DNA of 64,000 bases from positions 806,001 through 870,000 of the forward strand of contig NZ_FZOU01000001.1 in the NCBI RefSeq assembly GCF_900188085.1. The letters run 5' to 3'. Shown piece by piece: positions 49,532 to 64,000 of this stretch (position 1 is the first letter of the stretch; every line of letters starts with the position of its first letter). The stretch comes from Granulicella rosea. Its GTDB lineage: Bacteria > Acidobacteriota > Terriglobia > Terriglobales > Acidobacteriaceae. Below the pieces are notes generated by a model, which was given only the letters and a program-made list of their open reading frames with translations, was not told the DNA's origin and ran no database searches. Both the position numbers and the translations under genes were made by a program.

Positions 49532-50491
49532 ATGCAGTCCGTTGCAGAAAAGCAAACACCCCTGACCTTCCAGCAACTCCTCTTCAAGCTCCAGACCTTC
49601 TGGGCGGAGCGGGGCTGCGTGCTCCAGCAGCCGTACGACGTCGAGGTCGGCGCGGGTACGATGTCGCCCGACACCTTCCTGCGCGTACTGGGGCCGAAGC
49701 CGGTCCGCATCGCCTATGCGCAGCCCTCGCGGCGGCCGGCCGATGGACGTTACGGCGAAAACCCCAACCGGCTCTTCCGCCACACGCAGTTTCAGGTGAT
49801 CCTGAAACCGCCACCGGTGCGCATCCAGGAGATGTATTTGGAATCGCTCGAGGCCATCGGGATCGACCTGAGCGAACACGACCTGAAGTTTGAAGAGGAC
49901 AACTGGGAGTGGCCGGTGGGCGGCGCCTGGGGCGTCGGCTGGCAGGTGATGCTGGACGGCCTCGAGATCTCGCAGTTCACCTACTTCCAGCAGTGCGGCG
50001 GCATGGATCTGGACCCGATCTGCGGCGAGATTACCTATGGGCTGGAGCGTATCGCGGGCTTCCTGCAGGATGTGGATTCGATCTACGACATCGTCTGGGC
50101 GGTCGAGCCGGATACTGGTCGCAAGGTCACGTATGGCGACATTCGTCTGCCGGAGGAGCAGCAGTACTCGGCCTATGGCTTCGACTATGCCGACGTGCCG
50201 AAGCTGTGGGAGCACCTGAATCTCTATGAGGCCGAGTGCCTGGGGCTGCTCGAACAGGCCAAATCCATTGTCGAGATGGACGAACTGAAGAAGCTGCGCT
50301 TCCCAGTGCTTGGAGCCTACGAACTGGCGCTGAAATGCTCGCACCTGTTCAATCTGCTGGATGCTCGTGGAGCTATTTCGGTGACCGAGCGCGTGGGCGT
50401 GATGGCGCGGATTCGTACTCTGGTCGTGGGTGTGGCCAAGGCTTACGCGGCACAGGGTGAAGCGTTGGCTATGCCTTCCAGGGAAGTGTAA
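49532..50491 (+). CDS. glyQ: Glycyl-tRNA synthetase alpha subunit
   Basis: The 319-residue catalytic subunit of the two-part bacterial glycyl-tRNA synthetase. Family motifs include [19 protein letters not shown] near residue 11, [30 protein letters not shown] segment ([18 protein letters not shown]) and [20 protein letters not shown]. The start ATG at 49532 has TTGGAG upstream. The glyS gene follows after 129 nt, with a small ORF between them. Confidence 0.96.
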
Positions 50492-50493
50492 CG

Positions 50494-50628
50494 ATGCTCG
50501 AATGCATGATTGAGCAGTTTGGTGACGTGGTTCTAGGGTGGGCATTCGAGTCGCTGGCGCGGTTCATCGGTCGCCGTGTATCTCCGGCGAAGCCGGAATT
50601 AGTGAGATTGGGAATAACAAATGTCTGA
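50494..50628 (+). CDS. 44-residue ORF between glyQ and glyS (uncertain)
   Basis: A short ORF (MLECMIEQFGDVVLGWAF onward) starts 2 nt after the glyQ stop, with GGGAAG as a possible Shine-Dalgarno, and its stop lies 5 nt past the glyS start, so it would be translationally coupled. The codons include several rare ones (ATA, CTA, TTA), so it may instead be a non-coding spacer. No family recognised; low confidence. Confidence 0.3.
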   Translation: MLECMIEQFGDVVLGWAFESLARFIGRRVSPAKPELVRLGITNV

Positions 50629-52732
50629 GTTTTTATTTGAAATCGGTCTTGAAGAGATCCCCGCGCGCATGATCGCCGCCGCCGAGGCGGAGTTGCTGCG
50701 CCGCACCGTTGCACTGCTCGAACGCGAACGCCTCATCCCGGCAGGAGCGGCGGCGAAGAGCTTCTCCACCCCGCGCCGTCTCGCCGTACTCATCCACCAT
50801 GTTGCCGAGAGGCAGGACGACGTCGCCGAGGAACTTACCGGGCCTGCGACGAAGATTGCGTTCAAGGACGGAGCACCGGGGCCGGCGGCCATCGCGTTTG
50901 CGAAGAAGGCTGGCATCGCGGTCGAAGAGCTGAAGGTCATCCAGACGCCCAAGGGCGAATACATCGCCGCGACAACCGTGAAGCCCGGCCGTACCGCCGC
51001 CGAGGTGATTGCGGCCGAGTTGCCGAAGGAGCTTTCGGCGATCTACTGGCCGAAGAATATGCACTGGCGTCCGGGCCGTCCGTCGAATCCGGACCGCTTC
51101 GTGCGTCCGGTGCGCTGGCTGGTTGCGCTGCTCGGCCATGCGATTGTGCCGGTGGAGTTCGGCGGCTATACGGCGTCGGACGTGACCTACGGCCACCGCG
51201 TGCTGCAGGGGCCGGCGCCGGTTCAGGTCAAGTCGCCCGCAAGCTACGCCGCGACCCTGAACGAGGCCTTTGTGATGGCCGATGTGGAGCTGCGCCGCCA
51301 CACCATCCGCAAGGCGCTCGACCATGTCTGCCGGACGATTCAGTCGCCCGCGGGCTGCCGCTGGCGCGAGGATCACGCGCTGGTCGACAAGCTGACGCAC
51401 CTGACGGAGTGGCCGTCAGTGATCGCCGGCGCCTTCGACCCCGAGTACCTGACCCTGCCCGAAGAGGTGCTCGTCACGGTGATGCGCGACCACCAGAACT
51501 ACTTCGCGGTCGAGGACAAGGAAGGCAAGCTCGCGGCTCACTTCCTCGCGGTACTAAACACCGTGCCGGATGAGCGTGCGGCGGTGACGATCCAGCATGG
51601 CAATGCGCGTGTGCTTCGGGCGCGGTTCAACGATGCGCGGTTCTTCTGGGAGTTCGACCAGCGAACGCCGTTCGCGGAGCGGGTTGATCTGCTTGAGAAC
51701 GTGACCTTCCAGAAAGACCTTGGCAGCTACGCAGTGAAGTCGAGCCGGGTTGTTACGGTTTCCGGTAAGCTCGGCGCGGCTGTTTCGGGCAAAGGATTTG
51801 CGTTCCATTCCGAAGCTCTGCTCGACGCGGCGAAGCTCGCCAAGGTGGACCTGACCTGCGAGCTGGTGAAGGAGTTTACCGAGCTTCAGGGTATTATCGG
51901 CGGGCTGTATGCGCGTGCCGCGGGACTGAGTGAGACTACCGCCGCCGCGATCTATGACCAGTACACGCCGGCCTCGATGGAGGACCGCATTCCATCGACG
52001 GCCGAGGGCTGCCTGCTCGGGATCGCGGATCGTATCGACACGATTGCTGGCATGTTCTCGCTTGGGCTTGAGCCCACGGGGTCGAAGGACCCCTTCGCGC
52101 TGCGCCGTGCGGCAAACTCGATTGTGAAGATTCTCGCCGACTCGCAGCTTCCGCTGACGCTGAGCGAGGTGATTGCCGCGGCTTCTCCTTCGGATGAGGT
52201 TGCGGCGAAACTGAAGGCATTCTTTGCGGAGCGTCTGGACTTCTTCCTGCGCGAGGCGAAGGGGCAGGCGTATGACGTGGTGAAGGCGGTGCTCGCCGTT
52301 GGCGCTGACGATCCGCGCGATGCCGTTGCGAGGGCGGAGGCGGTGAGCGCCGTTCGTTCGAGTGACGACTTTGCGGCAGTCAGCGCGGCTTTCAAACGCA
52401 TGAAGAATATTCTTGCGCAGGCGGCGGAGAAGTCCGTCGCGGCTGCCGCTTCGGTCGACGATAGCCTTTTGACGGACCCGTCCGAGAAGGCGCTTGCGGA
52501 GCACTCCGCGATCCTTGCGGGGAATGTTCAGCGGCTGCGCGCTGCCGGCGATTTTAAGGCTGCGCTCGAAGCCATCGCGACATTGCGGTCGCAGGTCGAT
52601 GCGTTCTTCGAGGCTGTGATGGTCATGGCCCCGGAGCCGGAGATTCGCGCCAACCGGCTTGCCTTGTTGCAGAAAGTTTTGGCCGACTTTTCCGGGATCG
52701 CGGAGTTCTCGGAGATTGTCACGGCGGGTTAG
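50621..52732 (+). CDS. glyS: Glycyl-tRNA synthetase beta subunit
   Basis: The 703-residue subunit binds tRNA(Gly) and works with GlyQ. It begins FLFEIGLEEIPARMI and contains the HD-like domain pattern (LVDKLTHLTEWPSVI, VMRDHQNYFAVED), SMEDRIPSTAEGCLLGIADRIDTIAGMF and the anticodon-binding C-terminal region. It is shorter than some beta subunits at the C terminus but intact. It follows glyQ and the small intervening ORF. Confidence 0.96.
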   Translation: MSEFLFEIGLEEIPARMIAAAEAELLRRTVALLERERLIPAGAAAKSFSTPRRLAVLIHHVAERQDDVAEELTGPATKIAFKDGAPGPAAIAFAKKAGIAVEELKVIQTPKGEYIAATTVKPGRTAAEVIAAELPKELSAIYWPKNMHWRPGRPSNPDRFVRPVRWLVALLGHAIVPVEFGGYTASDVTYGHRVLQGPAPVQVKSPASYAATLNEAFVMADVELRRHTIRKALDHVCRTIQSPAGCRWREDHALVDKLTHLTEWPSVIAGAFDPEYLTLPEEVLVTVMRDHQNYFAVEDKEGKLAAHFLAVLNTVPDERAAVTIQHGNARVLRARFNDARFFWEFDQRTPFAERVDLLENVTFQKDLGSYAVKSSRVVTVSGKLGAAVSGKGFAFHSEALLDAAKLAKVDLTCELVKEFTELQGIIGGLYARAAGLSETTAAAIYDQYTPASMEDRIPSTAEGCLLGIADRIDTIAGMFSLGLEPTGSKDPFALRRAANSIVKILADSQLPLTLSEVIAAASPSDEVAAKLKAFFAERLDFFLREAKGQAYDVVKAVLAVGADDPRDAVARAEAVSAVRSSDDFAAVSAAFKRMKNILAQAAEKSVAAAASVDDSLLTDPSEKALAEHSAILAGNVQRLRAAGDFKAALEAIATLRSQVDAFFEAVMVMAPEPEIRANRLALLQKVLADFSGIAEFSEIVTAG

Positions 52733-52754
52733 CGTCTGTTGCGATTCAGATGCG

Positions 52755-52879
52755 AAAAGCAGATCCTCTTCGAGGATGACAAACAAGAGAGACAGAGCAA
52801 GAAGGGCAAGAGCAAAGGCAACGGCGAATCGATCGCCGTTGCCTTTCTTGTTTGTCATTCCCGCAGGGAATCTGCTTTT
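52755..52879. repeat. 125-bp palindromic dispersed element with terminal inverted repeats
   Basis: The element has 10-bp perfect terminal inverted repeats (AAAAGCAGAT at 52755-52764, ATCTGCTTTT at 52870-52879) and an inner pair (GACAAACAAG at 52778-52787, CTTGTTTGTC at 52847-52856). The intervals between the two pairs each carry their own small hairpin. There is no ORF inside. The structure resembles a small MITE-like or REP-type repeat. It also holds the 14-bp terminator stem at 52814-52846. Confidence 0.65.
52814..52846. terminator. Terminator after glyS
   Basis: A perfect 14-bp stem (52814-52827 with 52833-52846), loop ATCGA, followed by CTTGTTTG. It lies inside the palindromic element downstream of glyS. 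Confidence 0.8.
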
Positions 52880-52952
52880 CCCTTGCTCGCGGGATCAAAC
52901 CAGCGCCTCCGCATCGGCCCATCGTGGGCGGTCGAAGGCGTAGGATTAACCC

Positions 52953-54488
52953 ATGGATGGGTTTGAGTTTCTCGTGGTGGGCGGCGGCATTGCGGGTCTG
53001 AGTGCGGCGATTCGGTTGGCGGGGCGGGGCAGGGTTCTGGTGGTTACCAAGGATGCGCTGGCGGAGTCCAACACCGCTTACGCGCAGGGCGGAATTGCCG
53101 TGGCGATGGGCGGCGATGAGGATGTCTCGCTGCATCTTTCGGACACGGTCGCGGCGGGCGACGGGCTGGTGAACCGGCAGGCCGCGAAGATGCTGGTCGA
53201 GCAGGGACCGAAGCGCGTGGACGAGCTGCTGGCGTGGGGGACAGGCTTCGACCGCGGCGCGGCGGGCGAGTTGCTGCGCACGCGTGAAGGGGCGCACAGC
53301 CTCTCGCGCATACTGCATGCGAATGGCGATGCGACCGGGCGGGAGATTGCGCGGTCGCTGCTGAAGCATGCGCGCGGCATCCCGGTGATCACGTTGATGG
53401 AAGATACGACGACCGTCGAGCTGACGGTCGAGGAGGGCCGCGTCGTCGGCGCGCTGCTGCTGGGGGCCGATGGCAAGCTCTTCTCCGTGCGGGTGCGGGC
53501 GGTGCTGCTGGCGAGCGGTGGCGCGGGGCAGGTCTACTCCGACACGACCAACCCGGCGGTCGCGACGGGCGACGGCATCGCGATGGCGTATCGCGCCGGC
53601 GCGGAGCTTGAGGATATGGAGTTCTACCAGTTCCACCCGACGGCTTTCGCGAAGGAGGGCGCGCCGCGCTTCCTGATGAGCGAGGCGCTGCGCGGCGAGG
53701 GCGCCTGGCTGGTGAATGCGGCGGGCGAGCGTTTCATGAGCCGGTATCATCCTCAGTTGGAGCTTGCGCCGCGCGACGTGGTGGCTCGGGCGATCACACG
53801 CGAAGGGCTGGCCGGGCCGGTCTATCTCGACATGCGCCATGTGGAGATAGACCTGGCGGCGCGGTTTCCCGGCATCTCGGCGTTTCTTGCGAAGTACGGG
53901 CTGAAGCTCAACCGCGACCTGATTCCGGTGCGTCCGGCGGCGCACTACCTGATGGGCGGGATCAAGACCGACCTGCATGGCCGCACCTCCGTTCCCGGAC
54001 TTTTTGCGGCGGGTGAGGCGGCGTGTACGGGCGTCCACGGCGCGAACCGGCTGGCGAGCAATTCGCTGCTGGAGGGGCTGGTCTTTGGGGCTTCGGCCGC
54101 CGAGACGATGGCCGAAGAGCAGGGAGCAGGGACTCAAGATAAGGGAGTAGGGAAGACGGCGCCGCCTGTGCCGGTCGATCCGGCGGCGCTGGAGGTCTGG
54201 ATTGCGAAGCTGCGCAAGCTGATGTGGGAGGATGCCGGGTTGCTGCGCGATGGCGATGGGCTGCGGCGGGCGCAGGGGCGGCTGGACGGGATGATTCGGG
54301 GTTGCCCGCGGGGCGTGACCCGGCGAGAGGTCGAGGCGCGCAACCTGCTGACGGTCGCGTCGGTGATGGTGGAGTCGGCGCTGGGACGCGAGGAGAGCCG
54401 CGGCGCTCACTACCGTAGCGACTTCACGGGGCACTGGCCCGTGGCGAAACATTCCGTGATGGCAAAGGGGCGGCTGCGGTTCCAGTAG
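52953..54488 (+). CDS. nadB: L-aspartate oxidase
   Basis: The 511-residue FAD enzyme oxidises L-aspartate to iminoaspartate, the first step of de novo NAD synthesis. Motifs are the N-terminal FAD loop VVGGGIAGLSAA, SNTAYAQGGIAV, FYQFHPTA, SEALRGEGAWLVN, RPAAHYLMGGI and GANRLASNSLLEGLV. A short alanine/proline insert lies around residue 395-410 (AGTQDKGVGKTAPP). Its partner nadA is at 58647-59813, about 4 kb on, with the PepSY, TerC and Tat genes on the other strand between them. No riboswitch was seen before nadB. Confidence 0.95.
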   Translation: MDGFEFLVVGGGIAGLSAAIRLAGRGRVLVVTKDALAESNTAYAQGGIAVAMGGDEDVSLHLSDTVAAGDGLVNRQAAKMLVEQGPKRVDELLAWGTGFDRGAAGELLRTREGAHSLSRILHANGDATGREIARSLLKHARGIPVITLMEDTTTVELTVEEGRVVGALLLGADGKLFSVRVRAVLLASGGAGQVYSDTTNPAVATGDGIAMAYRAGAELEDMEFYQFHPTAFAKEGAPRFLMSEALRGEGAWLVNAAGERFMSRYHPQLELAPRDVVARAITREGLAGPVYLDMRHVEIDLAARFPGISAFLAKYGLKLNRDLIPVRPAAHYLMGGIKTDLHGRTSVPGLFAAGEAACTGVHGANRLASNSLLEGLVFGASAAETMAEEQGAGTQDKGVGKTAPPVPVDPAALEVWIAKLRKLMWEDAGLLRDGDGLRRAQGRLDGMIRGCPRGVTRREVEARNLLTVASVMVESALGREESRGAHYRSDFTGHWPVAKHSVMAKGRLRFQ

Positions 54489-54490
54489 AG

Positions 54491-54982
54491 CTAGAGCACC
54501 GTCATCAGAACCGGGATGACCGCGCCAAGGATCAGCAGCGCGGTGATAGCAATCCTGTTGCGCGAATACTTGTACGCCATGTAGATGCCGCTGAAGGTCG
54601 AGACGAAGAGACTGATCGCCACGAGCAGGAAGAAGTATTTGAGCGGCATGGGGTTGTGCGGTGCGACCGGCGGCGGGGCAGGGCTGGCTACGCTTACCGG
54701 CGCCTGACTCTTCTCGTTGGCGTGGTCGACTGCCTTCGGCGCGGGCGGCTTCGGCTTGTTCACCACCGGGGTCTGATTTTTGTGGATCTGGCCCAGGATG
54801 ACGATCCACTGCGCCGGCTTGTAGCTTGCGGCGGGCTTATAGGGCGTGCCTTTGCCGGGTTCGTGCAAGGAAAAGGTCTGCAGCGCGCCGGTGAGCGCGA
54901 AGAAGAGGATGGCCGGCGCGACGAAGACGCCGATGTACAGATGCGTCAGGCGCATGGCTTTCAGGACGGAGGCTGTCGACAT
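54491..54982 (-). CDS. PepSY-associated transmembrane protein
   Basis: The 163-residue protein has a first membrane segment (about residues 13-38) with the PepSY-TM pattern MRLTHLYIGVFVAPAILFF...TGALQTF, a proline/lysine-rich central loop, and two more hydrophobic segments near the C terminus. Such proteins are often tied to metal or flavin-linked membrane reductases, but the usual PepSY repeats are missing, so it is a reduced form. Its stop lies 2 nt beyond the end of nadB, on the opposite strand. Confidence 0.7.
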   Translation of the reverse strand: MSTASVLKAMRLTHLYIGVFVAPAILFFALTGALQTFSLHEPGKGTPYKPAASYKPAQWIVILGQIHKNQTPVVNKPKPPAPKAVDHANEKSQAPVSVASPAPPPVAPHNPMPLKYFFLLVAISLFVSTFSGIYMAYKYSRNRIAITALLILGAVIPVLMTVL

Positions 54983-55041
54983 GCGTTCAGTCTAACGTGC
55001 GTCAGCTCTGCCGAATCTGAATTTGCGGTCATCTTCCGTCG

Positions 55042-55968
55042 TTACGCGGCTCGTTTGGGCACGGCGAGCGAGAGTCCGATGGTGATCGCGAGCATCCCGA
55101 CGATGACCGCGAGCGACACCAGCGGGCCGACCTCGACCATCCGCGCGGCGAGCATCTTGAAGGCGGCGAAGCCGAGGATCGCGGCCAGTCCGTAGTGCAG
55201 GAAGCGAAGCTGTTTGAGCAGGTTGGCGAGCAGGAAGAAAAGACTGCGCAGCCCCATGACGGCGAGGATGTTCGAGGTATAGGCGAGAAACGGGTCGCGG
55301 GTGATCGAGAGCACGGCGGGGATGGAGTCGAGCGCGAAGACGACGTCGGTCAACTCGATCGCGACCAGGCAGAGGAAGAGCATGGTGACGACGCGGCGGC
55401 CGTTTTCGACGGTAAAGAAGCAGTCCTGCTTCATCGAGACGGGGTGGATGCGCGAGAGCCAGGAAACCCAGCCCGGCGTTCTGGCTTCCTCTTCCTCTTT
55501 TTCGGGCATCACAAGGCGGATGGCGGCGAAGAGCAGGATCGCGCCGAAGACGTAGCTGATCCAGTGGAAGTGTTCGAGCAGGCCGAGGCCGGCGGCGATG
55601 AAGCCTCCGCGCATGACGATGGCGCCGGCGACGCCCCAGAAGAGCACGCGCGGCTGAAGCACGGGTCGAATCTGGAAGAGCTTGAAGAGCAGCAGGAAGA
55701 CGAAGAGGTTGTCGATCGAAAGCGCCTCTTCGATGGCGTAACCGGCGAGAAACTGTGTCGCCTGGGCTCCGTCGCGCGTCTGCCAGACCCAGCCGCCAAA
55801 GGCCAGCGCCGCCGCGATCCACAGGATGGTGGCGACGATGGAGGTGCGCTGCTGCTTCGCATCCGGCTCGCGCCTGCTGGGCCGTCGAGCGTAGAGCAGC
55901 TCCATCGCCAGCAGCACGATCAGCAGGATATGAAAGCCGATCCAGTGGGAGAGCGGGGTTGCGGGCAT
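55042..55968 (-). CDS. TerC family membrane protein
   Basis: The 308-residue polytopic protein is a TerC/Alx-type integral membrane protein: EEALSIDNLFVFLLLF near residue 85 and ELTDVVFALDSIPAVLSI near residue 205 hold the conserved acidic residues. Family members export manganese or take part in metal ion and secretion-related homeostasis. Nine or so helices are visible. The start ATG 55968 was chosen since the open frame upstream has no family match. It follows the QC-like gene on the same strand. Confidence 0.88.
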   Translation of the reverse strand: MPATPLSHWIGFHILLIVLLAMELLYARRPSRREPDAKQQRTSIVATILWIAAALAFGGWVWQTRDGAQATQFLAGYAIEEALSIDNLFVFLLLFKLFQIRPVLQPRVLFWGVAGAIVMRGGFIAAGLGLLEHFHWISYVFGAILLFAAIRLVMPEKEEEEARTPGWVSWLSRIHPVSMKQDCFFTVENGRRVVTMLFLCLVAIELTDVVFALDSIPAVLSITRDPFLAYTSNILAVMGLRSLFFLLANLLKQLRFLHYGLAAILGFAAFKMLAARMVEVGPLVSLAVIVGMLAITIGLSLAVPKRAA

Positions 55969-55994
55969 GCTTCTATCGTAAGGCAAGCAAACGG

Positions 55995-56987
55995 CTAGCG
56001 CTGGTCGATCAGCTTGATCATCTCGAGGAAGAGGTCGCCCGCGGTCTGGAGGGATTGCGGGCTGATCTTGTCGATGGTGTCGAGCGCGGTGTGGTGGTAG
56101 CCGCCCTCGGGGTGGTCCTGCGTCGGCGGGCCGTACTCGATGTCGATGATGTCGAGCACCGGGACGCCGCGCTTCTGGAACGGCAGATGGTCGTCCTCGA
56201 CCGCGGTGACGTTCTTGAAGACGCTGGAGGTATGGCCGGTGTTCTTCGCGGCCTTCGAGAGCAGGTCGATCAGCCACGGCGTGGAGTTTTGATCCTGATC
56301 GATGTTCAGGTCGCGGTCGCCGATCATGTCGGCCACCATGAAGGCTTTGATCTTGCCGAGCGTGCCGTCCTGCGACCACTTGGCCGCGAGATGGCGCGTG
56401 CCGTAGAGGGAATCGGAGTTCGACCAGTTCTTGACCGCCTCCTCGCCGTCGTCGAAGACCAGCCAGACGCTATACCCCGTCGGCGGATGCGCGCGCAGGT
56501 AGGCGCCGATCTCCATCAGCAGGGCGGAGGTGCAGGCGCCGTCGTTGGCGCCGACGAAGTTGATGTCGCGCAGCGGCCAGTTGGTCTCGTAGTGGCTGGC
56601 GATGACGATGACGCCGTCCTTCTTGCCGGGGTAGCGGACGATGTAGTTGCGTAGCGACTGCTGGCCGGCGGGCGTGCTGGCCGAGAAGCTGTCGGTCTCG
56701 AAGCGGCCGGCGGCGATCTCCGGTGCGAAGTGCGCCTTGATGAAGTTTTCTGCCGCGAGGTGGCCGGGGGAGCCGTTGAAGCGCTTGGGCGCGGCGGCGA
56801 GGAACTCTTTGGTGAGGTTGTAGGTCGCTGCGCCGCTGATGTGACCTGCCGGGGCCGCGGCAGGTCTTTGTGCCTGAGCCGAAGGGAGAAGAGCCAAGGT
56901 CGTCGCGAGCGTGAGCAGTGTACGTCCCACCCATCGTCCGATGATGCCGGTCGATGGATGGGGCACCCGATCATTTGAGGTCTGCAT
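55995..56987 (-). CDS. Secreted M28-type glutaminyl cyclase-like enzyme
   Basis: The 330-residue protein has a Sec-type signal peptide (about residues 1-40, ending AQAQ) and a zinc-dependent M28 fold. The segments DDGEEAVKNWSNSDSLYG, VGANDGACTSALLM and HHTALDTIDKIS correspond to the metal and catalytic positions of animal glutaminyl-peptide cyclotransferases (QC), and the WS..DSLYG..HLA run is characteristic. It may form N-terminal pyroglutamate on exported proteins or act as an aminopeptidase. The start overlaps the tatC stop by one base (TGATG), so it is translationally coupled to tatC. Confidence 0.78.
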   Translation of the reverse strand: MQTSNDRVPHPSTGIIGRWVGRTLLTLATTLALLPSAQAQRPAAAPAGHISGAATYNLTKEFLAAAPKRFNGSPGHLAAENFIKAHFAPEIAAGRFETDSFSASTPAGQQSLRNYIVRYPGKKDGVIVIASHYETNWPLRDINFVGANDGACTSALLMEIGAYLRAHPPTGYSVWLVFDDGEEAVKNWSNSDSLYGTRHLAAKWSQDGTLGKIKAFMVADMIGDRDLNIDQDQNSTPWLIDLLSKAAKNTGHTSSVFKNVTAVEDDHLPFQKRGVPVLDIIDIEYGPPTQDHPEGGYHHTALDTIDKISPQSLQTAGDLFLEMIKLIDQR

Positions 56988-57769
56988 CACGATTTCAGCT
57001 CCTTGCGCTTGCGGTGGTCCGGGTGGACGAAGTACGCGACGCCCACGCCCAGCAGGTAGAGCACCAGCATCGGCGAGGCGAAGATGCACATGCTGATGGG
57101 GTCGGGCAGCGGGCAGATGACCGCCGAGATGATGAAGATGATCAGGATCGCGTAGCGGATGTGCTTGAGCAGGAACTTCGCGTCCACGATGCCGAAGAGC
57201 GAGAGAAAGAAGATAAGGATCGGCAGCTCGAAGCAGATGCCCAGGCCCAGGATGATCGCGAGGAAGAAGCCGGTGTAGTCCTCGATCGTAATCATGTGGG
57301 TGAAGTTCTTGCCCATCTCCTGAATGAGCACGACCATCGCGCCAGGCAGCACCCAGCGATAGCCGAACCAGGCTCCGGAGAGGAAGAGCGTCACCGTCGC
57401 GCCCATGAACGGCCAGACGTAGCGCTTCTCGTGCGCATACATGCCGGGCGAGATGAACAGCCACACCTGATAAAGGATGAACGGGCTCGCGATGATCGCG
57501 CCGAAGACGACCGAGGCCTTGATATAGAGGTTCAGCGCGTCGGTGGGGTGCGTCATCGTCATCTTCAGGCCGATGTCGGTCAGCGGCTTCTGAAGATAGT
57601 TGACCAGTTGCACGCGGAAGAGCCATGCGACGCCGAAGCCGGCGAGCAGGAACAGAATCATGCGGATGAGCCGCTTGCGCAGCTCGTCCAGATGCTCCAT
57701 CAGGCTCATGCCGGGCAGTTCGGCGCGGTCGGAGATGTTCGACCGTACGTCGTCGATGAGATCAGCCAT
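56987..57769 (-). CDS. tatC: Sec-independent protein translocase TatC
   Basis: The 260-residue protein has six membrane helices and the TatC marks MEHLDELRKRLIRM near residue 23, SPFILYQVWLFISPGMYAHEKRY near residue 95 and FELPILIFF. It is the receptor for twin-arginine signal peptides. It overlaps the tatB-like gene upstream by 8 nt and the QC-like gene downstream by 1 nt. The tight operon suggests co-regulation of export and the cyclase. Confidence 0.96.
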   Translation of the reverse strand: MADLIDDVRSNISDRAELPGMSLMEHLDELRKRLIRMILFLLAGFGVAWLFRVQLVNYLQKPLTDIGLKMTMTHPTDALNLYIKASVVFGAIIASPFILYQVWLFISPGMYAHEKRYVWPFMGATVTLFLSGAWFGYRWVLPGAMVVLIQEMGKNFTHMITIEDYTGFFLAIILGLGICFELPILIFFLSLFGIVDAKFLLKHIRYAILIIFIISAVICPLPDPISMCIFASPMLVLYLLGVGVAYFVHPDHRKRKELKS

Positions 57770-58304
57770 GCAGGTGCGCCTCGGCGTTCTGGTCTTGCTC
57801 GTGTGCTTCGTGGGCCGGGGGAATTGCGTCGAAGACAGGCGACAGGGAGGTCGACGAGCCGGAGCGTCCGACGGGCAGGCCGGTAGCCGGCGGCATCAGG
57901 TTCAGGTCGCCGGAGGTGGCGATCGGCAGCGGCGCAGGTTCCGGCGCTGCCGCGTGGATGCGGTTCTCGAGCTCCGCCTCGGCTACCGTCTCGGAGCTCA
58001 GGGGCGCCTCGGAGTCCGCAACCGTGTCGAGCGATTGCGTCGGCATATGCGGATGCTCGGGCTCGGGGATGTCGAGCGCCGGGGCGATGGGCGCGGCGGC
58101 CTCCATGGCGGCGATCTGCTTCTGCCGTTCGGCCTGCTCGGAGAGACGCAGCTCCTCGTCCATCTGCATGCGGAATTCGTTCGAGGCGCGGCGGAACTCG
58201 GCCATCAGTTTGCCGATCTGGCGCGCGAGTTCGGGCAGCTTCTTCGGTCCGAAGAGCAGCAGCGCGATGACGAAGATGACGGCACTGTCTTGAAAGCTGG
58301 GCAT
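57762..58304 (-). CDS. tatB: TatA/TatB family translocase subunit
   Basis: The 180-residue protein has one N-terminal membrane helix (about residues 6-20) with the hinge GPKKLPELARQIGKL, an amphipathic helix, and a long proline/alanine-rich acidic tail. The length and tail favour TatB over TatA; no separate tatA gene is visible. It overlaps tatC by 8 nt and begins the minus-strand Tat operon, divergent from nadA. Confidence 0.85.
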   Translation of the reverse strand: MPSFQDSAVIFVIALLLFGPKKLPELARQIGKLMAEFRRASNEFRMQMDEELRLSEQAERQKQIAAMEAAAPIAPALDIPEPEHPHMPTQSLDTVADSEAPLSSETVAEAELENRIHAAAPEPAPLPIATSGDLNLMPPATGLPVGRSGSSTSLSPVFDAIPPAHEAHEQDQNAEAHLHG

Positions 58305-58486
58305 ACGCAGACCCCATGATACGGCTTACCGGTTGACGGAACAAATGGCGGGTCTGGATTCACGCTGATGTAAAATAGACGTTGTAGAGGGATTCGGCGT
58401 GGCCTGGGGGCGTGTGCGTAGAACGTGCATCGTTTTTCGGTATGCGGGGTCTAATTGAGTGCGGCCATCTGGCCGCGGTCAGTACG

Positions 58487-58642
58487 GGTTGCAACATCCC
58501 CGTGGGTTGGCGTTCCGACGTATATATCGGCGGAACGTAGCGCATCCACTGCAACCTTTTGCAGGAAACGGCTTTCAACATCCCCGTTTCACGAGCGGAA
58601 AGCGCGCCTTGCGCGAACGACTCGGTGAGACTGAAGGCGGAG
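58487..58642 (+). promoter_or_regulatory. Tandem NAD+-I (nadA motif) riboswitch
   Basis: Two similar RNA domains precede nadA. Domain 1 (58487-58556) has P1 GGTTGC/GCAACC, then the conserved CAACATCCCCGT, a P2 pair GTGG/CCAC, and a P3 hairpin (CGTTCCG at 58511-58517 with CGGAACG at 58531-58537). Domain 2 (58571-58638) repeats CAACATCCCCGT, with P1 GCTTTC/GAAGGC, P2 GTTTCAC/GTGAGAC (one wobble) and a further GCGC stem. This matches the NAD+-I riboswitch known from acidobacterial nadA leaders. The last P1 strand overlaps the AAGGCGGAG Shine-Dalgarno of nadA, so ligand binding should block translation. Upstream, 58305-58486 holds only a small hairpin (58461-58476). Confidence 0.93.
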
Positions 58643-58646
58643 TAGA

Positions 58647-59813
58647 GTGAACGGACTCGTGGAGTTGGAAGAGCTGGCGGCAACGGCCGTCGCTCCGGTC
58701 TCAGGTGAGGCGTGTGCGCTGGAGAACTACCTGGCGCAGCCGGATCACACCATGGACGCGCGCATTGCAGCGGCGCGGGCGAAGCTGGGCACGGACGTCG
58801 TCCTGCTGGGGCACCACTATCAGCGCGACGAGGTGATCCGGTTCGCGGACTTCACCGGCGACAGCTATAAACTTTCTAAAATCGCCGCCTCGACCGACGC
58901 GAGGTACATCCTGTTCTGCGGCGTTCACTTTATGGCCGAGAGTGCGGACGTGCTCGCGAAGCCGTGGCAGCAGGTGATTCTGCCGGACCTGAACGCCGGC
59001 TGTTCGATGGCCGATATGGCCGAGATCGGGCAGGTGGAAGACTGCTGGGATTCGCTGGAGCGGCTGGGCGTCAAAAATCTGATGCCGCTCACCTATATGA
59101 ACTCCGCCGCCGACATCAAGGCCTTCTGCGGCGAGCGCGGCGGCTTGGTCTGCACCTCGTCGAACGCTCGCGGAGCGTTCGAGTGGGCGTTTGAGCGCGC
59201 CGAAAAGATTCTCTTCCTGCCCGATCAGCACCTCGGCCGCAACACTGCCTGGGCGATGGGCATACCGCTCGACGAGATGGTCGTCTGGGACCCCTATATG
59301 TTGAACGGCGGCACGACGCCCGAGCGGCTGGCGCGGGCAAAGGTCATCTTGTGGAAGGGCCACTGCTCGGTCCACCAGCGCTTTCTGCCTGAGCATGTCG
59401 ATCGCGTTCGCCGCGAAGAACCCGGCATGCAGGTCATCTGCCACCCGGAGTGCCGCTGGGAGGTCTGCCAGAAGGCCGACTACCTCGGCTCGACCGAGCG
59501 CATCATCGAGATCATCGAGCAGGCGCCGGAGGGTTCGAGCTTCGCTATCGGTACGGAGATCCACCTCGTCAACCGGCTGGCGGCGCGCTTCGCCCCGCTG
59601 GGCAAACGAGTCATTACGCTCGACGATTCAGGCTGCCTGTGCACGACGATGTACCGGATCAGCCCGGCGCATCTGGCCTGGTCGCTCGAAAACCTCGTCG
59701 CGGGCGAGGTGGTGAACCAGATCAAGGTGTCGGACGAGACCAAGCACTGGGCGCGCGTGGCGCTGGACCGGATGCTCGAGGTCAAGGCCGCGACGCCGGT
59801 GATTCGGCTTTAG
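58647..59813 (+). CDS. nadA: Quinolinate synthase
   Basis: The 388-residue 4Fe-4S enzyme condenses iminoaspartate with dihydroxyacetone phosphate to quinolinate in NAD synthesis. Motifs: LGHHYQRDEVIRFADFTGDS near residue 52, LPDLNAGCSMADM near residue 115, CTSSNA, LPDQHLGRNTA, WKGHCSVH and HPECRWEVCQKADYLGSTE. The cluster cysteines fall in NAGC, VCTSSNA and near DSGCLC. The start is a GTG with GGAG 4 nt upstream, inside the riboswitch's last helix. It is followed after 12 nt by the DUF2203 gene. Confidence 0.96.
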   Translation: MNGLVELEELAATAVAPVSGEACALENYLAQPDHTMDARIAAARAKLGTDVVLLGHHYQRDEVIRFADFTGDSYKLSKIAASTDARYILFCGVHFMAESADVLAKPWQQVILPDLNAGCSMADMAEIGQVEDCWDSLERLGVKNLMPLTYMNSAADIKAFCGERGGLVCTSSNARGAFEWAFERAEKILFLPDQHLGRNTAWAMGIPLDEMVVWDPYMLNGGTTPERLARAKVILWKGHCSVHQRFLPEHVDRVRREEPGMQVICHPECRWEVCQKADYLGSTERIIEIIEQAPEGSSFAIGTEIHLVNRLAARFAPLGKRVITLDDSGCLCTTMYRISPAHLAWSLENLVAGEVVNQIKVSDETKHWARVALDRMLEVKAATPVIRL

Positions 59814-59825
59814 TTTGGAGATGCC

Positions 59826-60257
59826 GTGAGCAAGACTTTCACCTTGAGCGAGGCTCAGACGCTGGTGCCCGTGCTCGACGCCCTGGTGCGCCGGGCGCGG
59901 GAGGCGGCGCTGCGCGGCAGCGTTCTGGACGAGGAGATGCAGCGGCTGAACCAGCGCATCTTCCTTTCGGGCGGACTGCACGTCGACGTTCCCGCCGCCG
60001 CGCGCCGCCGGGCCGAGCACGACAAGGCCGCGCAGCAGACCAAGTCGACCATCGAGGAGATCGCCGAGATCGGCGCCGAGATCACCGATCTCGAGGCCGG
60101 AACGCTCGAACTGCCGTGCGCCACCGAGGGCCGTGTGGTGCAGCTTTGCTGGCGGCTGGGCGAGACGGAGATTCTGCACTGGCGCGAGATCGACGATGAG
60201 ATGGATGTGCGGCGGAATCTGACGCGCGGATTCGGACGCGGCCAGCGGCTTCAATAA
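59826..60257 (+). CDS. DUF2203 family protein
   Basis: The 143-residue protein matches the DUF2203 family: FTLSEAQTLVPVLDALVRRAREA at the start, then a long charged helix and the C-terminal motif VQLCWRLGETEILHWREIDD. Function unknown; members often sit with NAD or coenzyme genes. The start is a GTG, TTTGGAG upstream, 12 nt after nadA, so it is probably in the nadA operon and under the same riboswitch. Confidence 0.8.
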   Translation: MSKTFTLSEAQTLVPVLDALVRRAREAALRGSVLDEEMQRLNQRIFLSGGLHVDVPAAARRRAEHDKAAQQTKSTIEEIAEIGAEITDLEAGTLELPCATEGRVVQLCWRLGETEILHWREIDDEMDVRRNLTRGFGRGQRLQ

Positions 60258-60434
60258 CGCGAAAGCAAGAGCGGATCCCTGCGCGAGTCACATTCAAGGT
60301 GGCGCCCGATGTCTCCGCGACGGAACTTTAATATTGGCGGAGCGCCATTTCGAGCGCGGCTACGTCGAACGGGAGAGCCTGCCGCGGCAACGGTACAGAC
60401 CTGAAGATGAAGGCGGACCGCGCGGGATCGGCTC

Positions 60435-60462
60435 GAACTTGAGAGGATGAACTTGAGAGGCT
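60435..60462. repeat. Tandem 14-bp duplication upstream of the propeller gene
   Basis: The unit GAACTTGAGAGG occurs at 60435-60446 and again at 60449-60460, 14 nt apart, just before the gene start. It duplicates a Shine-Dalgarno-like GAGAGG. The rest of the 213-nt gap (60258-60470) shows nothing clear. Confidence 0.6.
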
Positions 60463-60470
60463 TTGACGGC

Positions 60471-61625
60471 ATGAAGGTACAGGGAATGAAGCGGCTGGGA
60501 ACAGCCATGGCTGGACTTGCGATGTTGGCCCTGACCGGATGCGCGGGCTTCTTCGTCTCCACCAGCAGCACGTCGACCTCGACGACCGCCACGGCGGGCG
60601 ACTATGTTTACGCGTTGAACCCGACGACCAGCACGCTGAGCGCCTACACGGTCGGCTCGGGGACGCTGACGGCGATCTCCGGCTCGCCGTACACGCTGGC
60701 TTCGACCGTCGCGCCGCTATCGGTTTGCGTCTCCGGGTTGAACACGATCGTTTACGTCGGCGGCACAGGCGGGATCTACGGCTATTTGATCGGCACGAAC
60801 GGCGCGCTGACGCAGATCAGCAGCGGCGCCGCGCTCGCCACCGCGGCTGTCGCGCGCATCGCGTGTTCGCCCGACGGCAACTGGCTGGTGGCGCTCGATT
60901 CCGCCAACGCGCAGGTGGACGAGTATCAGATCGCCACCTCCACCGGCTTGCTGACCTCCGTGTCGTCCGTGGCATACAGCTACACCTCGGGCCTGACGCC
61001 TTCGCTTGCGAGCATCCGCTTCTCGCCCCTGGCCGGATACGTGATTGCGGCGCTGGGTAATGCCGGCACCGCCGTGTACACCTTCAACACCTCGACCGGC
61101 GCGCTGGCCTCCGCCTACACGATCAATCCCAGCACGACGACCATCAACCACAATGCGGTGACCGTCAACAGCACCGACACGATGCTCTATATTGCGGAGA
61201 GCGGATCGAGCGCGGGCGTCCTGACCTACACCCTGGGCACGACCACGGTCTCGGGCAGCACCACGCCGGTCGCGGCAGGGACCGCGCCCTACTCGGTCGA
61301 ACTGTCGAAGACGAACGGTTTTCTTTATGTGGGCAACTATGGCACGGCCTCCACGGGAACGCCGGGCAGCATCTCGCAGTACTCGTTTGAAAACAGCGTG
61401 CCGACGGCGCTGAGTCCCGCGTCGGTCTCCTCCTCGGGCTACGTGGTGACGATGGCGCGAGACAACTCGGGCAGTTATCTGCTGGCGGGGCTGGGCGGCG
61501 TCACGACCGATCTGGTCATGTACGACTTCTCCTCGTCGACCACGGGAACGCTGGTCAGCACGGCCTCGCAGGCCACGTCTTCGGCCAATACCGGGGCAGG
61601 ATTGCAGATTGCCACCACCCATTGA
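60471..61625 (+). CDS. Lactonase-like beta-propeller lipoprotein
   Basis: The 384-residue product has a lipoprotein signal (MKRLGTAMAGLAMLALTGC, with LTGC lipobox), a serine/threonine-rich linker, and repeats of about 45-50 residues with YVYALNPTTSTLSAYTV-like and FLYVGNYGTAS blades, the pattern of YncE/lactonase seven-bladed propellers. The substrate is unknown. Three in-frame ATG codons (60447, 60471, 60486) make the exact start uncertain; 60471 is chosen because a GAGAGG lies upstream. Confidence 0.75.
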   Translation: MKVQGMKRLGTAMAGLAMLALTGCAGFFVSTSSTSTSTTATAGDYVYALNPTTSTLSAYTVGSGTLTAISGSPYTLASTVAPLSVCVSGLNTIVYVGGTGGIYGYLIGTNGALTQISSGAALATAAVARIACSPDGNWLVALDSANAQVDEYQIATSTGLLTSVSSVAYSYTSGLTPSLASIRFSPLAGYVIAALGNAGTAVYTFNTSTGALASAYTINPSTTTINHNAVTVNSTDTMLYIAESGSSAGVLTYTLGTTTVSGSTTPVAAGTAPYSVELSKTNGFLYVGNYGTASTGTPGSISQYSFENSVPTALSPASVSSSGYVVTMARDNSGSYLLAGLGGVTTDLVMYDFSSSTTGTLVSTASQATSSANTGAGLQIATTH

Positions 61626-61675
61626 TCGCTACCTGCGTCGATGCAGATGGTAGTCTGCAAACGGATAAGAAATCG

Positions 61676-62953
61676 ATGCGGCGTGTGCAAGGTTTGAAGG
61701 TTCTGGGTGTTTCTACCGCTGTGCGGCGTCGGCTGGCGCTCGCGGCCCTGTCTGTTTCACTATTGCCGCTAGCGCTGGCGGGCTGTTCGCGGCTGAAGCC
61801 GAAGCCGCCGGATGTGTATGTCTATGTGACGTCGAAGCAGGGGTATCTGCGCGACCGGGTGGCGGCTGTCTCGAACCGCACCGGGCAGGTGCAGAACGGC
61901 GACAAGCTGAAGGTGCTGGACCACGCGCGGAAGTTCGTGAAGGTGCAGACGGCCAAGGGCGAGATTGGCTGGATCGAAGAGCGAGCGCTCGCGCCGGCCG
62001 AGGTGCCAGGCGAGTTCGACGCGCTGAAGGAAGCGCATAAGAACGATCCGGCGGTCGCGTCCGCGGTCGTGCGCGACGAGGTCTATCTTCACCTGAAGCC
62101 CGGTCGCGAGACCGAAAAGTTCTACCGGCTGCAGGAGGGCGAGAAGCTGAAGCTGCTGTCGCGCGCGACGCTCGAACGCCTGATGCCGGGGCAGTCGCCG
62201 GGCGTGCGGGCGCAGCGCGCGATTCCGCAGGCGGCCGGCACGAACGCGGCGATCAAGCCGAAGGAGGGCGACGAAGCCGCGACGACGAAGGTTCCCGCGC
62301 CTGGCGCCGCGGCCGCGAAGGACGCGCCCGTACCTCCACCGCCGACGATGGAGGACTGGTGGCTGGTGCGCGACTCGCAGGGGCGCACAGGCTGGATGTT
62401 CGCCCGCATGATGGATGTGGATGCGCCGGACTCGCTGACGCGCTACGCCGAGGGCCAGCGCATCGTCGGCGCGTACGTGCTCACAACGGTGAACGACCCC
62501 GACGCCGAGCAGGCGGACAAGAACATCCCCATCTATGTAACCGTGATGAGCCCGTACAAAGCCGGCCTGCCGTACGACTTCGACCAGGTGCGCGTCTTTA
62601 CCTGGAGCGTGAAGAAGCATCGCTACGAGACCGGTTTCCGAGAGCGCAACATCGAGGGATTCCTGCCGATGTCGATCAAGGTGGCTCCGGACCCGACGGC
62701 CAAGCCGGGCTCTCCACAGGCCGCGCCCGCGCCGACCTTCAGCTACCGCGTGCTCTCGGCCGACTCCGGCCCGGTCGTCCCCGACCCGGAGACCGGTTTA
62801 ATTACGCCGGGCAAGACCATCACCAAGACCTTCCGGCTGGAGAACAACTATGTCCGCCGGGTCACCCAGCCGGGCGCGCCGCCGGTGATGGAGGCGCATC
62901 CCGACCCGATCGTCGATAAGAAGAAGGATGCGAAGGGGAAGAAGAAAAAGTAG
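61676..62953 (+). CDS. Lipoprotein with two bacterial SH3-type regions
   Basis: The 425-residue protein has a lipoprotein signal (LALAGC near residue 38), then an SH3b-like domain (YLRDRVAAVSNRTGQVQNGDKL, WIEERALA) and a second SH3b-like region (LHLKPGRETEKFYRLQEGEKLKLLSR, then WWLVRDSQGRTGWMF). Between them is an alanine/proline-rich stretch. The tail is lysine-rich (KKKDAKGKKKK). SH3b domains often bind cell-wall peptides. It is 50 nt after the propeller gene and may be co-transcribed. Confidence 0.75.
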   Translation: MRRVQGLKVLGVSTAVRRRLALAALSVSLLPLALAGCSRLKPKPPDVYVYVTSKQGYLRDRVAAVSNRTGQVQNGDKLKVLDHARKFVKVQTAKGEIGWIEERALAPAEVPGEFDALKEAHKNDPAVASAVVRDEVYLHLKPGRETEKFYRLQEGEKLKLLSRATLERLMPGQSPGVRAQRAIPQAAGTNAAIKPKEGDEAATTKVPAPGAAAAKDAPVPPPPTMEDWWLVRDSQGRTGWMFARMMDVDAPDSLTRYAEGQRIVGAYVLTTVNDPDAEQADKNIPIYVTVMSPYKAGLPYDFDQVRVFTWSVKKHRYETGFRERNIEGFLPMSIKVAPDPTAKPGSPQAAPAPTFSYRVLSADSGPVVPDPETGLITPGKTITKTFRLENNYVRRVTQPGAPPVMEAHPDPIVDKKKDAKGKKKK

Positions 62954-62955
62954 TG

Positions 62956-63453
62956 CTACTGGAAGTCGGGCTTCCACCAGGGGAGCGGCATCGCGAAGTA
63001 GACGATCTCTCCGGGTGCGGCTCCAATCTTCAGCCTGGTGCTGCATTCATTGCCGGGGACGAAGCCCTGACGCAGCACTGTGGCTACATCCAGCAGTGGA
63101 GAGCCAGTCATGTTGCAGTCGGTATAGGGGATTCTCCCCGGCTCCTTGCCCATCTTCGGACCTCCACGAAGCAGGAAGGTTGTCGCGTTTGCGGGAACGT
63201 CGACTCGTGCGGAACCCGTCCCGTCGATGTGGAGCACAATGTCGGTCGACTCTTCGGTATGCCCTGCTTTGTTCCGGCCTGTTTTGCCTGGCTCCTCCAA
63301 CAAAAATGTGACGGTGACATTTCGATTTGTCATCGGCTTTCCGGTTTTGCCGTGGACGAGCCGGATGGTGAGCTGCTGTGCAGAGATGACAGGGCCGAGC
63401 ATGGCCAGTCCTGCAAGAGCGACGAGCATTCGAATGTGCCGGTGACCAGCCAT
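62956..63453 (-). CDS. Secreted protein of unknown function
   Basis: The 165-residue product has a signal peptide (about residues 1-25, ending VISAQ) and a domain with QLTIRLVHGKTGKPMTNRNVTVTF, which looks like a beta-sandwich or prealbumin-type fold. Two cysteines (DCNMT and ECSTR) could form a disulfide. No named family. The start ATG 63453 has AGGAGA upstream. It converges with the SH3b gene, 2 nt between stops. Confidence 0.6.
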   Translation of the reverse strand: MAGHRHIRMLVALAGLAMLGPVISAQQLTIRLVHGKTGKPMTNRNVTVTFLLEEPGKTGRNKAGHTEESTDIVLHIDGTGSARVDVPANATTFLLRGGPKMGKEPGRIPYTDCNMTGSPLLDVATVLRQGFVPGNECSTRLKIGAAPGEIVYFAMPLPWWKPDFQ

Positions 63454-63481
63454 GGACTGTTCTCCTGAAAATCTTCGATCG

Positions 63482-64000
63482 CTACGCGTAAAAATCTCGA
63501 ATCGCTGCGACCACCGTCTCCTGCTCGTCCGTACGCAGCTCCGGATACATCGGCAGAGCGAGCACCTCGGCGGCGGCACGTTCCGTTTCGGGAAAGTCGC
63601 CTGCCTTGTAGCCCAGCGACTGCAGACTCTCCTGCAGGTGCAGCGGCAGGGGATAGTAGATCTCCGTGCCGATCCTGCGTTCGGTCAGATAAGCCCGCAG
63701 CTCATCGCGGCGCGGCGCACGGATGACATATTGATGGAAGACGTGCTGGGCGCGGCGGTCGGTCCACGGCAGGACGATACCTTCCGCAACCGTAGGACCG
63801 GTGAGTCCGGCAGCGAGAAAGAGCTGGTTGTAGTTCGCGGCCAGATTGCGCCGCTGCTGATTCCACTCCGGCAAATAGCGGAGTTTGATCTCCAGCACCG
63901 CGGCCTGGATCGTGTCGAGCCGCGAGTTCCAGCCCACCTCGTCGTGAAAGTAGCGCCGCCGCATGCCGTGGGCGCGCAGCATGCGCATCCGCTCGTCGAG
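63482..64000 (-). CDS. DegT/DnrJ/EryC1/StrS-type aminotransferase, truncated by window edge
   Basis: The C-terminal 173 residues of a PLP-dependent sugar aminotransferase family protein; the 5' end lies outside the window. GWNSRLDTIQAAVL and the final EIYYPLPLHLQESL, then LALPMYPELRTDEQE segments are typical of the family, which transaminates nucleotide-linked keto sugars for surface polysaccharides or antibiotic sugars. The catalytic lysine lies in the missing part. The gene follows the secreted protein gene on the same strand. Confidence 0.88.
   Translation of the reverse strand, partial: LDERMRMLRAHGMRRRYFHDEVGWNSRLDTIQAAVLEIKLRYLPEWNQQRRNLAANYNQLFLAAGLTGPTVAEGIVLPWTDRRAQHVFHQYVIRAPRRDELRAYLTERRIGTEIYYPLPLHLQESLQSLGYKAGDFPETERAAAEVLALPMYPELRTDEQETVVAAIRDFYA

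What the first reader, a model, noticed from the sequence alone, without database searches (positions are those of the whole stretch)
58487..58642. Tandem NAD+-I riboswitch controlling nadA, with domain 2 overlapping the Shine-Dalgarno
Two domains share CAACATCCCCGT and matching P1/P2/P3 helices, with compensatory pairs (P2 is GTGG/CCAC in domain 1). This is the nadA motif, a recently described NAD+-sensing RNA found mostly in Acidobacteria. The P1 strand GAAGGC of domain 2 overlaps the AAGGCGGAG Shine-Dalgarno, so ligand binding should repress nadA and probably the following DUF2203 gene. Two domains of unequal P3 could bind NAD+ with different affinity.
Basis: partly seen in the sequence, partly recalled or inferred. 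Interest (0 to 1): 0.8.

Follow-up and report, generated by a model that had tools for sequence, protein, structure and literature searches.

The report
Tandem NAD+ riboswitch before nadA
In front of the NAD-making gene nadA lie two consecutive copies of a known NAD+-sensing RNA motif, the second covering part of the ribosome-binding site, so that NAD+ binding is predicted to switch the gene off; it is an ordinary member of a known class that happens to bear on the open question of what the second copy does.

Summary
The finding is correct and already explained. Window 58487-58556 and 58571-58638 both match Rfam RF03013 (nadA / NAD+-I riboswitch; 57.6 and 46.6 bits, gathering 37.5), the only two matches in the genome, directly upstream of nadA (GTG 58647) with DUF2203 12 nt after nadA. 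The 3' strand of the second P1 (58632-58638) covers AAGGC of the Shine-Dalgarno stretch AAGGCGGAG. New member of a known kind; NAD+ binding and translational OFF control come from published work, not from a test here. Comparison adds: (1) all 129 parsed tandems precede NadA, and in 127 of 129 the predicted Shine-Dalgarno duplex begins inside P1'. (2) In 150 domain 2 copies the J1 bulge is nearly invariant, but the J2 GYG that clamps it in domain 1 is in place in only 16, and 9 copies have a loop of 4-6 nt in place of everything above a 5-bp P1a'. (3) In the window's genus the linker can pair with the domain 1 P1 strand in 36 of 38 tandems (15.6 by shuffle), but this is minor at equilibrium and at chance outside the genus.

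The parts
58487..58556 (+). Domain 1 of the tandem NAD+-I riboswitch
   Evidence: RF03013, 57.6 bits
58487..58493 (+). Domain 1 P1, 5' strand (pairs with 58550-58556)
   Evidence: 7 of 7 pairs
58494..58501 (+). Domain 1 J1 bulge ACAUCCCC (ligand pocket by published structures)
   Evidence: sequence; alignment
58502..58508 (+). Domain 1 P1a, 5' strand (pairs with 58543-58549; last pair U.C)
   Evidence: 6 of 7 pairs
58540..58542 (+). Domain 1 J2 GYG (here GCG), partner of C13 and C14 by published structures
   Evidence: sequence; kept in 127 of 130 parsed rows
58549..58564 (+). Possible anti-P1 hairpin CUGCAA-CCUU-UUGCAG formed by the P1 3' strand and the linker, exclusive with P1
   Evidence: weak
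58557..58570 (+). Linker between the domains
   Evidence: sequence
58571..58638 (+). Domain 2 of the tandem NAD+-I riboswitch
   Evidence: RF03013, 46.6 bits
58571..58577 (+). Domain 2 P1', 5' strand GCUUUCA
   Evidence: 7 of 7 pairs with 58632-58638
58578..58585 (+). Domain 2 J1 bulge ACAUCCCC
   Evidence: sequence; same word in 136 of 150 copies
58586..58592 (+). Domain 2 P1a', 5' strand (pairs with 58625-58631)
   Evidence: 7 of 7 pairs
58593..58624 (+). Domain 2 apical part: GAG/CUC, internal loop, CGCG hairpin, bulged G 58624; no GYG
   Evidence: sequence
58632..58638 (+). Domain 2 P1', 3' strand UGAAGGC, overlaps the Shine-Dalgarno
58634..58642 (+). Shine-Dalgarno stretch AAGGCGGAG
   Evidence: sequence
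58647..59813 (+). nadA, quinolinate synthase, GTG start
   Evidence: TIGR00550, PF02445
59826..60257 (+). DUF2203 gene, likely on the same mRNA
   Evidence: PF09969; conserved neighbour

Best explanation
The leader at 58487-58638 holds two domains that match the NAD+-I (nadA) riboswitch model in front of nadA, and it likely represses nadA translation when NAD+ or another ADP-bearing nucleotide is bound. Domain 1 has the published pocket elements (P1 with its C6-G pair, ACAUCCCC bulge, GYG in J2) and is the likely sensor. Ligand binding there is inferred to favour folding of domain 2, whose P1' helix (complementarity seen in the sequence) pairs AAGGC of the Shine-Dalgarno; closing P1' would block ribosome entry 8 nt before the GTG. 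Domain 2 keeps the bulge bases but not the J1-J2 clamp, so it is likely a weak or non-binding partner that serves as the expression platform. DUF2203 is likely co-regulated through a shared mRNA.
For: Both domains above the Rfam cut-off, the only matches in the genome. NadA downstream. 129 of 129 parsed tandems precede NadA, start codon 6-12 nt after P1' in 125 of 129. Predicted Shine-Dalgarno duplex begins inside P1' in 127 of 129. Compensatory changes in domain 1 P1 and P1a and in domain 2 P1a' (partly favoured by the parser, which demanded pairing). No terminator-like site between domain 2 and the GTG. Predicted free leader leaves P1' mostly open (0.08) and the Shine-Dalgarno 0.68 unpaired. 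Published binding and repression for the class (PMC10702441, PMC7708056, PMC7297122).
Against: No binding or expression test here. The class does not discriminate NAD+ from ADP/ATP in vitro (PMC10702441). The last P1a pair of domain 1 is U.C. P1' itself shows no compensatory change, only U.G/U-A at pair 3, so the Shine-Dalgarno helix is not proved by covariation. The structure prediction of the long leader is only moderately more stable than shuffles (z -1.99), and its best fold does not contain P1'.
Confidence: 0.8

Rival explanations
1. Two-threshold sensor: both domains bind NAD+ independently, domain 1 at micromolar and domain 2 at millimolar level, and only the second binding closes the Shine-Dalgarno (model of PMC7708056).
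For: A8, C9, A10, C12, C14 and C15 of the domain 2 bulge are the same in 150 of 150 copies, as expected of a used pocket; a crystal structure and weak binding of domain 2 are reported (PMC7708056).
Against: GYG is in place in only 16 of 150 domain 2 copies and 9 copies have lost everything above P1a'; PMC10702441 found one ligand per full-length RNA and none on domain 2.
Confidence: 0.3
2. The physiological signal is ADP/ATP (energy charge) rather than NAD+.
For: Full-length RNA binds ADP and ATP as well as or better than NAD+ (PMC10702441).
Against: 129 of 129 parsed tandems precede nadA; PMC7708056 states that the motif is never found with genes of ADP/ATP synthesis.
Confidence: 0.15
3. The linker acts as an anti-P1 strand that competes for the domain 1 P1 3' strand and raises the ligand level needed; a genus-specific refinement that adds to the main model.
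For: In the window's genus 36 of 38 tandems can form it against 15.6 by shuffled linkers, mean energy -6.98 against -2.94 (29 of 31 distinct linker/P1 combinations against 13.0). In the window its probability is 0.38 or 0.33, the highest of the 36 genus members.
Against: At chance outside the genus (11 of 91 against 12.2). Linkers of other genera (10 nt or more) behind genus arms form it in 299 of 646 trials. Mean equilibrium probability in the genus 0.05, above 0.2 in 4 of 36. The window's own linker is not significant on its own (p 0.065). Members of one genus are not independent.
Confidence: 0.2
4. The leader is a static structured 5' end that limits nadA translation without sensing a ligand.
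For: No ligand was tested here; P1' covers the Shine-Dalgarno in any case.
Against: Domain 1 keeps the pocket and clamp bases, which a static hairpin would not need; ligand binding is published for the class.
Confidence: 0.05

Closest known systems
NAD+-I riboswitch (nadA motif, Rfam RF03013)
   Same: Both domains above the family's cut-off, tandem order, ACANCCCC bulge, GYG in domain 1, nadA downstream, ribosome-binding site in P1' of domain 2
   Different: Nothing that sets it apart; 14-nt linker with a possible anti-P1 strand, and UCG in place of GYG in domain 2 (loss of J2 in domain 2 is already reported in general terms, PMC7708056)
NAD+-II riboswitch (pnuC motif)
   Same: Senses NAD+-related compounds (abstract starts of PMC7749635 and PMC10085692, search listing)
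   Different: Different fold with a long-range pseudoknot, precedes pnuC; no match in the window
Tandem glycine riboswitch
   Same: Two homologous aptamers with one expression platform in the second; PMC10702441 draws the parallel
   Different: Unrelated sequence and fold; there both aptamers bind ligand

Membership tests
NAD+-I riboswitch (RF03013) | Covariance-model score above the gathering cut-off | tested here: met
   57.6 and 46.6 bits against 37.5
NAD+-I riboswitch (RF03013) | Two domains in tandem | tested here: met
   58487-58556 and 58571-58638, 14-nt linker
NAD+-I riboswitch (RF03013) | 8-nt ACANCCCC bulge after a 7-bp P1 with C6-G in each domain | tested here: met
   Both domains, 7 of 7 P1 pairs
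NAD+-I riboswitch (RF03013) | 7-bp P1a and GYG in J2 of domain 1 | tested here: met
   GCG at 58540-58542; P1a 6 of 7 standard pairs, last is U.C
NAD+-I riboswitch (RF03013) | Located before a gene of NAD+ synthesis | tested here: met
   NadA
NAD+-I riboswitch (RF03013) | Ribosome-binding site in P1' of domain 2 | tested here: met
   UGAAGGC 58632-58638 overlaps AAGGCGGAG 58634-58642
NAD+-I riboswitch (RF03013) | Binds NAD+ (ADP moiety) and represses the gene | not testable with these tools
   Needs in-line probing or calorimetry and a reporter

The most novel reading that the evidence does not exclude
Domain 2 of NAD+-I riboswitches is a stripped-down pocket kept by selection for a contact of its own, not by the domain 1 clamp: its GCUUUCA-ACAUCCCC-GU arm is nearly frozen (position 11, free in domain 1, is U in 143 of 150 domain 2 copies) while J2 and P1b are lost, down to tetraloop-like caps. 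Its bulge docks onto ligand-bound domain 1 and so carries the signal to the Shine-Dalgarno, with a genus-specific linker strand that competes for P1 setting the threshold.
Probability: 0.35. Interest if true: 0.55.

Novelty: new member of a known kind. Interest (0 to 1): 0.3.

Why it matters
The locus itself adds one more NAD+-I riboswitch. What is useful is the comparative pattern: published work disagrees on whether domain 2 binds a ligand, and natural domain 2 copies that lack everything above P1a' (for example L182, L186, L221, L260) are small, ready-made test objects. If such a copy still regulates, the J1-J2 clamp is not needed in domain 2, and its conserved bulge must contact either the ligand weakly or domain 1.

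Tried and rejected
Antisequestor inside the domain 2 loop: the window has GAAAGC that could pair with GCUUUC of P1', but over 129 tandems the longest run is no better than in shuffled loops (mean 4.66 against 5.00 for 38 genus members, 4.31 against 4.33 for 91 others; window itself p 0.32). Rejected as a general device.

Antisequestor in the nadA coding start: the window's best fold pairs the P1' 5' strand with the early coding region, but over 129 tandems such pairing is weaker than in synonymous-codon shuffles (mean -8.68 against -9.66; p <= 0.05 in 1 and p >= 0.95 in 20 of 129; window itself p 0.067). Rejected as a general device.

Terminator: none is called between domain 2 and the GTG in the scan of 58250-60450 (3 sites against 1.3 expected: one at the end of nadA, two overlapping ones at 58410-58430 upstream of domain 1; no promoter-like site). 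Transcriptional control is not favoured.

Single-domain versions: nine family genomes gave one hit. Three (G401, G480, G561) gave a second hit, below the cut-off, under laxer filters. Five (G476, G499, G518, G524, G550) show pieces of the other domain in the sequence (G518 ends at a contig edge, and for G524 only the 3' arm of domain 1 was seen). G678 (30.2 bits, below cut-off) looks like chance. The two hits outside the family (G116, G276; 27.7 bits each) look like chance inside other sequence. No single-domain case was shown, and none was excluded beyond the genomes listed.

Dropped or doubtful rows: 1 false row (in L201) was dropped from 130 parsed. In L269 domain 1 looks mis-assigned (34-nt gap), and L008 has an odd 27-nt linker; both were kept, but not counted with the genus. 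The parser demanded a near-consensus J1 and pairing, so the J1 and pairing counts are biased. The 150 were anchored on GCUUUCA, the P1' 3' strand and P1a' pairing instead, plus a J1-like word upstream (1 of 151 dropped for lacking it). Of 177 whole-genome loci 33 held no parsed tandem: 30 show a domain 2 with a domain 1 arm upstream by eye (some are repeats of one genome), 2 are the chance hits, 1 is a contig end. Of the 45 same-genus genomes with hits, 38 are in the linker test.

The founding paper (Malkowski 2019) is not held under its DOI and is known here only through later papers.

Full report
What is there. Two stretches on the + strand, 58487-58556 and 58571-58638, match Rfam RF03013 (nadA riboswitch) at 57.6 and 46.6 bits (gathering 37.5), E 6.5e-11 and 1.1e-7 for the whole window. 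With permissive filters over 50000-64000 no other family reaches its cut-off. A search of the whole genome (24 contigs, 5.29 Mb) lists these two matches only. The next gene is NadA (GTG 58647, 388 aa; TIGR00550 and PF02445), then DUF2203 (59826; PF09969) 12 nt later. tatA (57762-58304, PF02416) runs the other way, so the leader likely begins a transcript of its own (inference; the promoter scan found nothing).

Anatomy. Numbering follows the domain 1 crystal structure (PMC7297122, Results part 1). Domain 1: P1 GGUUGCA/UGCAACC, J1 ACAUCCCC, P1a GUGGGUU/CAUCCAC (last pair U.C), G23 G24 opposite A35 G36 C37 G38, P1b CGUUCCG/CGGAACG. The bases named there for contacts to the ADP moiety and for the C13-G38 and C14-G36 clamp are present. 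Domain 2: P1' GCUUUCA/UGAAGGC, the same J1, P1a' GUUUCAC/GUGAGAC, then GAG/CUC with one bulged G (58624) and UCG in place of GYG, so the C14-G36 contact cannot form. AAGGCGGAG (58634-58642) begins inside P1'; the GTG starts 8 nt after P1'.

Relatives. Of 396 genomes of the phylum 38 match, 36 above cut-off; all 36 are in the window's family and each has two hits (strict filters). In the family 241 of 398 match, 239 above cut-off.

A parser found 130 distinct tandems, 129 after one false row was dropped. NadA follows in 129 of 129. DUF2203 is found in 106; of the other 23, 18 had less than 2400 nt of DNA and 5 had enough. The first in-frame start codon lies 8 nt after P1' in 64, and 6-12 nt in 125 of 129. 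A predicted duplex with a 16S tail string (recalled) begins inside P1' in 127 of 129. Domain 1 P1, domain 1 P1a and domain 2 P1a' show compensatory changes among 122 distinct rows; P1' does not, apart from U.G/U-A at pair 3. That is expected if its 3' strand is fixed by the Shine-Dalgarno (inference), but it also means covariation does not prove P1'.

Where domain 2 differs. In domain 1 GYG is kept in 127 of 130 parsed rows; the other three are the false row, L269 (doubtful) and L285. In 150 domain 2 copies found without prescribing J1, A8, C9, A10, C12, C14 and C15 are the same in all 150, C13 in 141 (U 6, A 3) and U11 in 143; yet GYG is at its place in 16 and a G at position 38 in 52, and nine copies have an apical loop of only 4-6 nt on a 5-bp P1a'. 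In domain 1, position 11 is U 56%, A 31%, C 12%, G 2%. One family genome (G561, L303) has lost P1b and J2 in both domains and still precedes an open NadA frame. Loss or change of J2 in domain 2 is in print (PMC7708056, sections 17 and 21). I did not meet the cap-only copies in the sections I read, but the founding paper was not available, so I do not claim that they are new.

Mechanism. Published models agree that closing P1' hides the ribosome-binding site and disagree on whether domain 2 binds ligand (PMC7708056: about 35-fold weaker than domain 1; PMC10702441: none detected, one ligand per full-length RNA, no discrimination against ATP). The invariant bulge of domain 2 argues that it is under selection; the missing clamp argues that it does not work as a copy of domain 1. 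I favour domain 1 as the sensor and domain 2 as the expression platform with a weak or indirect role. Energy calculations on 58487-58690 give P1' 0.08 and the Shine-Dalgarno 0.68 unpaired without ligand, in keeping with a ligand-dependent OFF switch but no proof; the leader is only moderately more stable than shuffles (z -1.99). Two general antisequestors were tested and rejected.

Linker. In the window CUGCAA (58549-58554) can pair with UUGCAG (58559-58564), which excludes P1. In the genus 36 of 38 tandems can form a like hairpin (15.6 by shuffle), elsewhere 11 of 91 (12.2 by shuffle); linkers of other genera put behind genus arms do so in 299 of 646 trials. At equilibrium it is minor (genus mean 0.05 over 36; window 0.33), and the window's linker alone is not significant (p 0.065). 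It could act during transcription, once the linker is made; that is a guess.

Distribution. Of 20 family genomes without a hit that I examined (157 of 398 had none; some of the 20 were taken), 10 have a NadA 53-57% identical to the window's and 10 have none at E 1e-20. NadA behind the tandem is at least 66.5% identical, median 75.6% (122 alignments over 300 aa, the window's own copy among them). So in this sample the switch goes with one NadA lineage.

Papers, and what I saw: PMC10702441 (abstract, Introduction, junction section, Discussion part 1), PMC7708056 (abstract, sections 17 and 21), PMC7297122 (abstract, Results part 1), PMC9481103 (passages), PMC7749635 and PMC10085692 (start of abstract in the search listing). 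Searches for literature.

Verdict. A true and ordinary NAD+-I riboswitch; what interest it has lies in the comparative constraint on domain 2.

Noticed in passing
59826-60257: DUF2203 follows NadA in 106 of 129 riboswitch tandems; such a steady partner of nadA suggests a role near NAD synthesis.
   Followed up: partly
58593-58624 and same-genus relatives: Many same-genus domain 2 apical arms share an asymmetric internal loop (5' CGAA-like, 3' ACGA-like) between AGG/CCU- or GAG/CUC-type pairs and the end hairpin (listing); role unknown.
   Followed up: no
L303 (G561): A very short tandem in which both domains lack P1b and J2, still in front of an open NadA frame.
   Followed up: partly
L302, L306: Domain 1 copies with a long insertion above P1a, which the Rfam model misses at default settings.
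   Followed up: partly
L313-L322: Family genomes without the motif that still have NadA carry a divergent one (53-57% identical to the window's).
   Followed up: partly
52953-54488: nadB (L-aspartate oxidase, TIGR00551) lies 4 kb upstream on the same strand and has no RF03013 match of its own.
   Followed up: no
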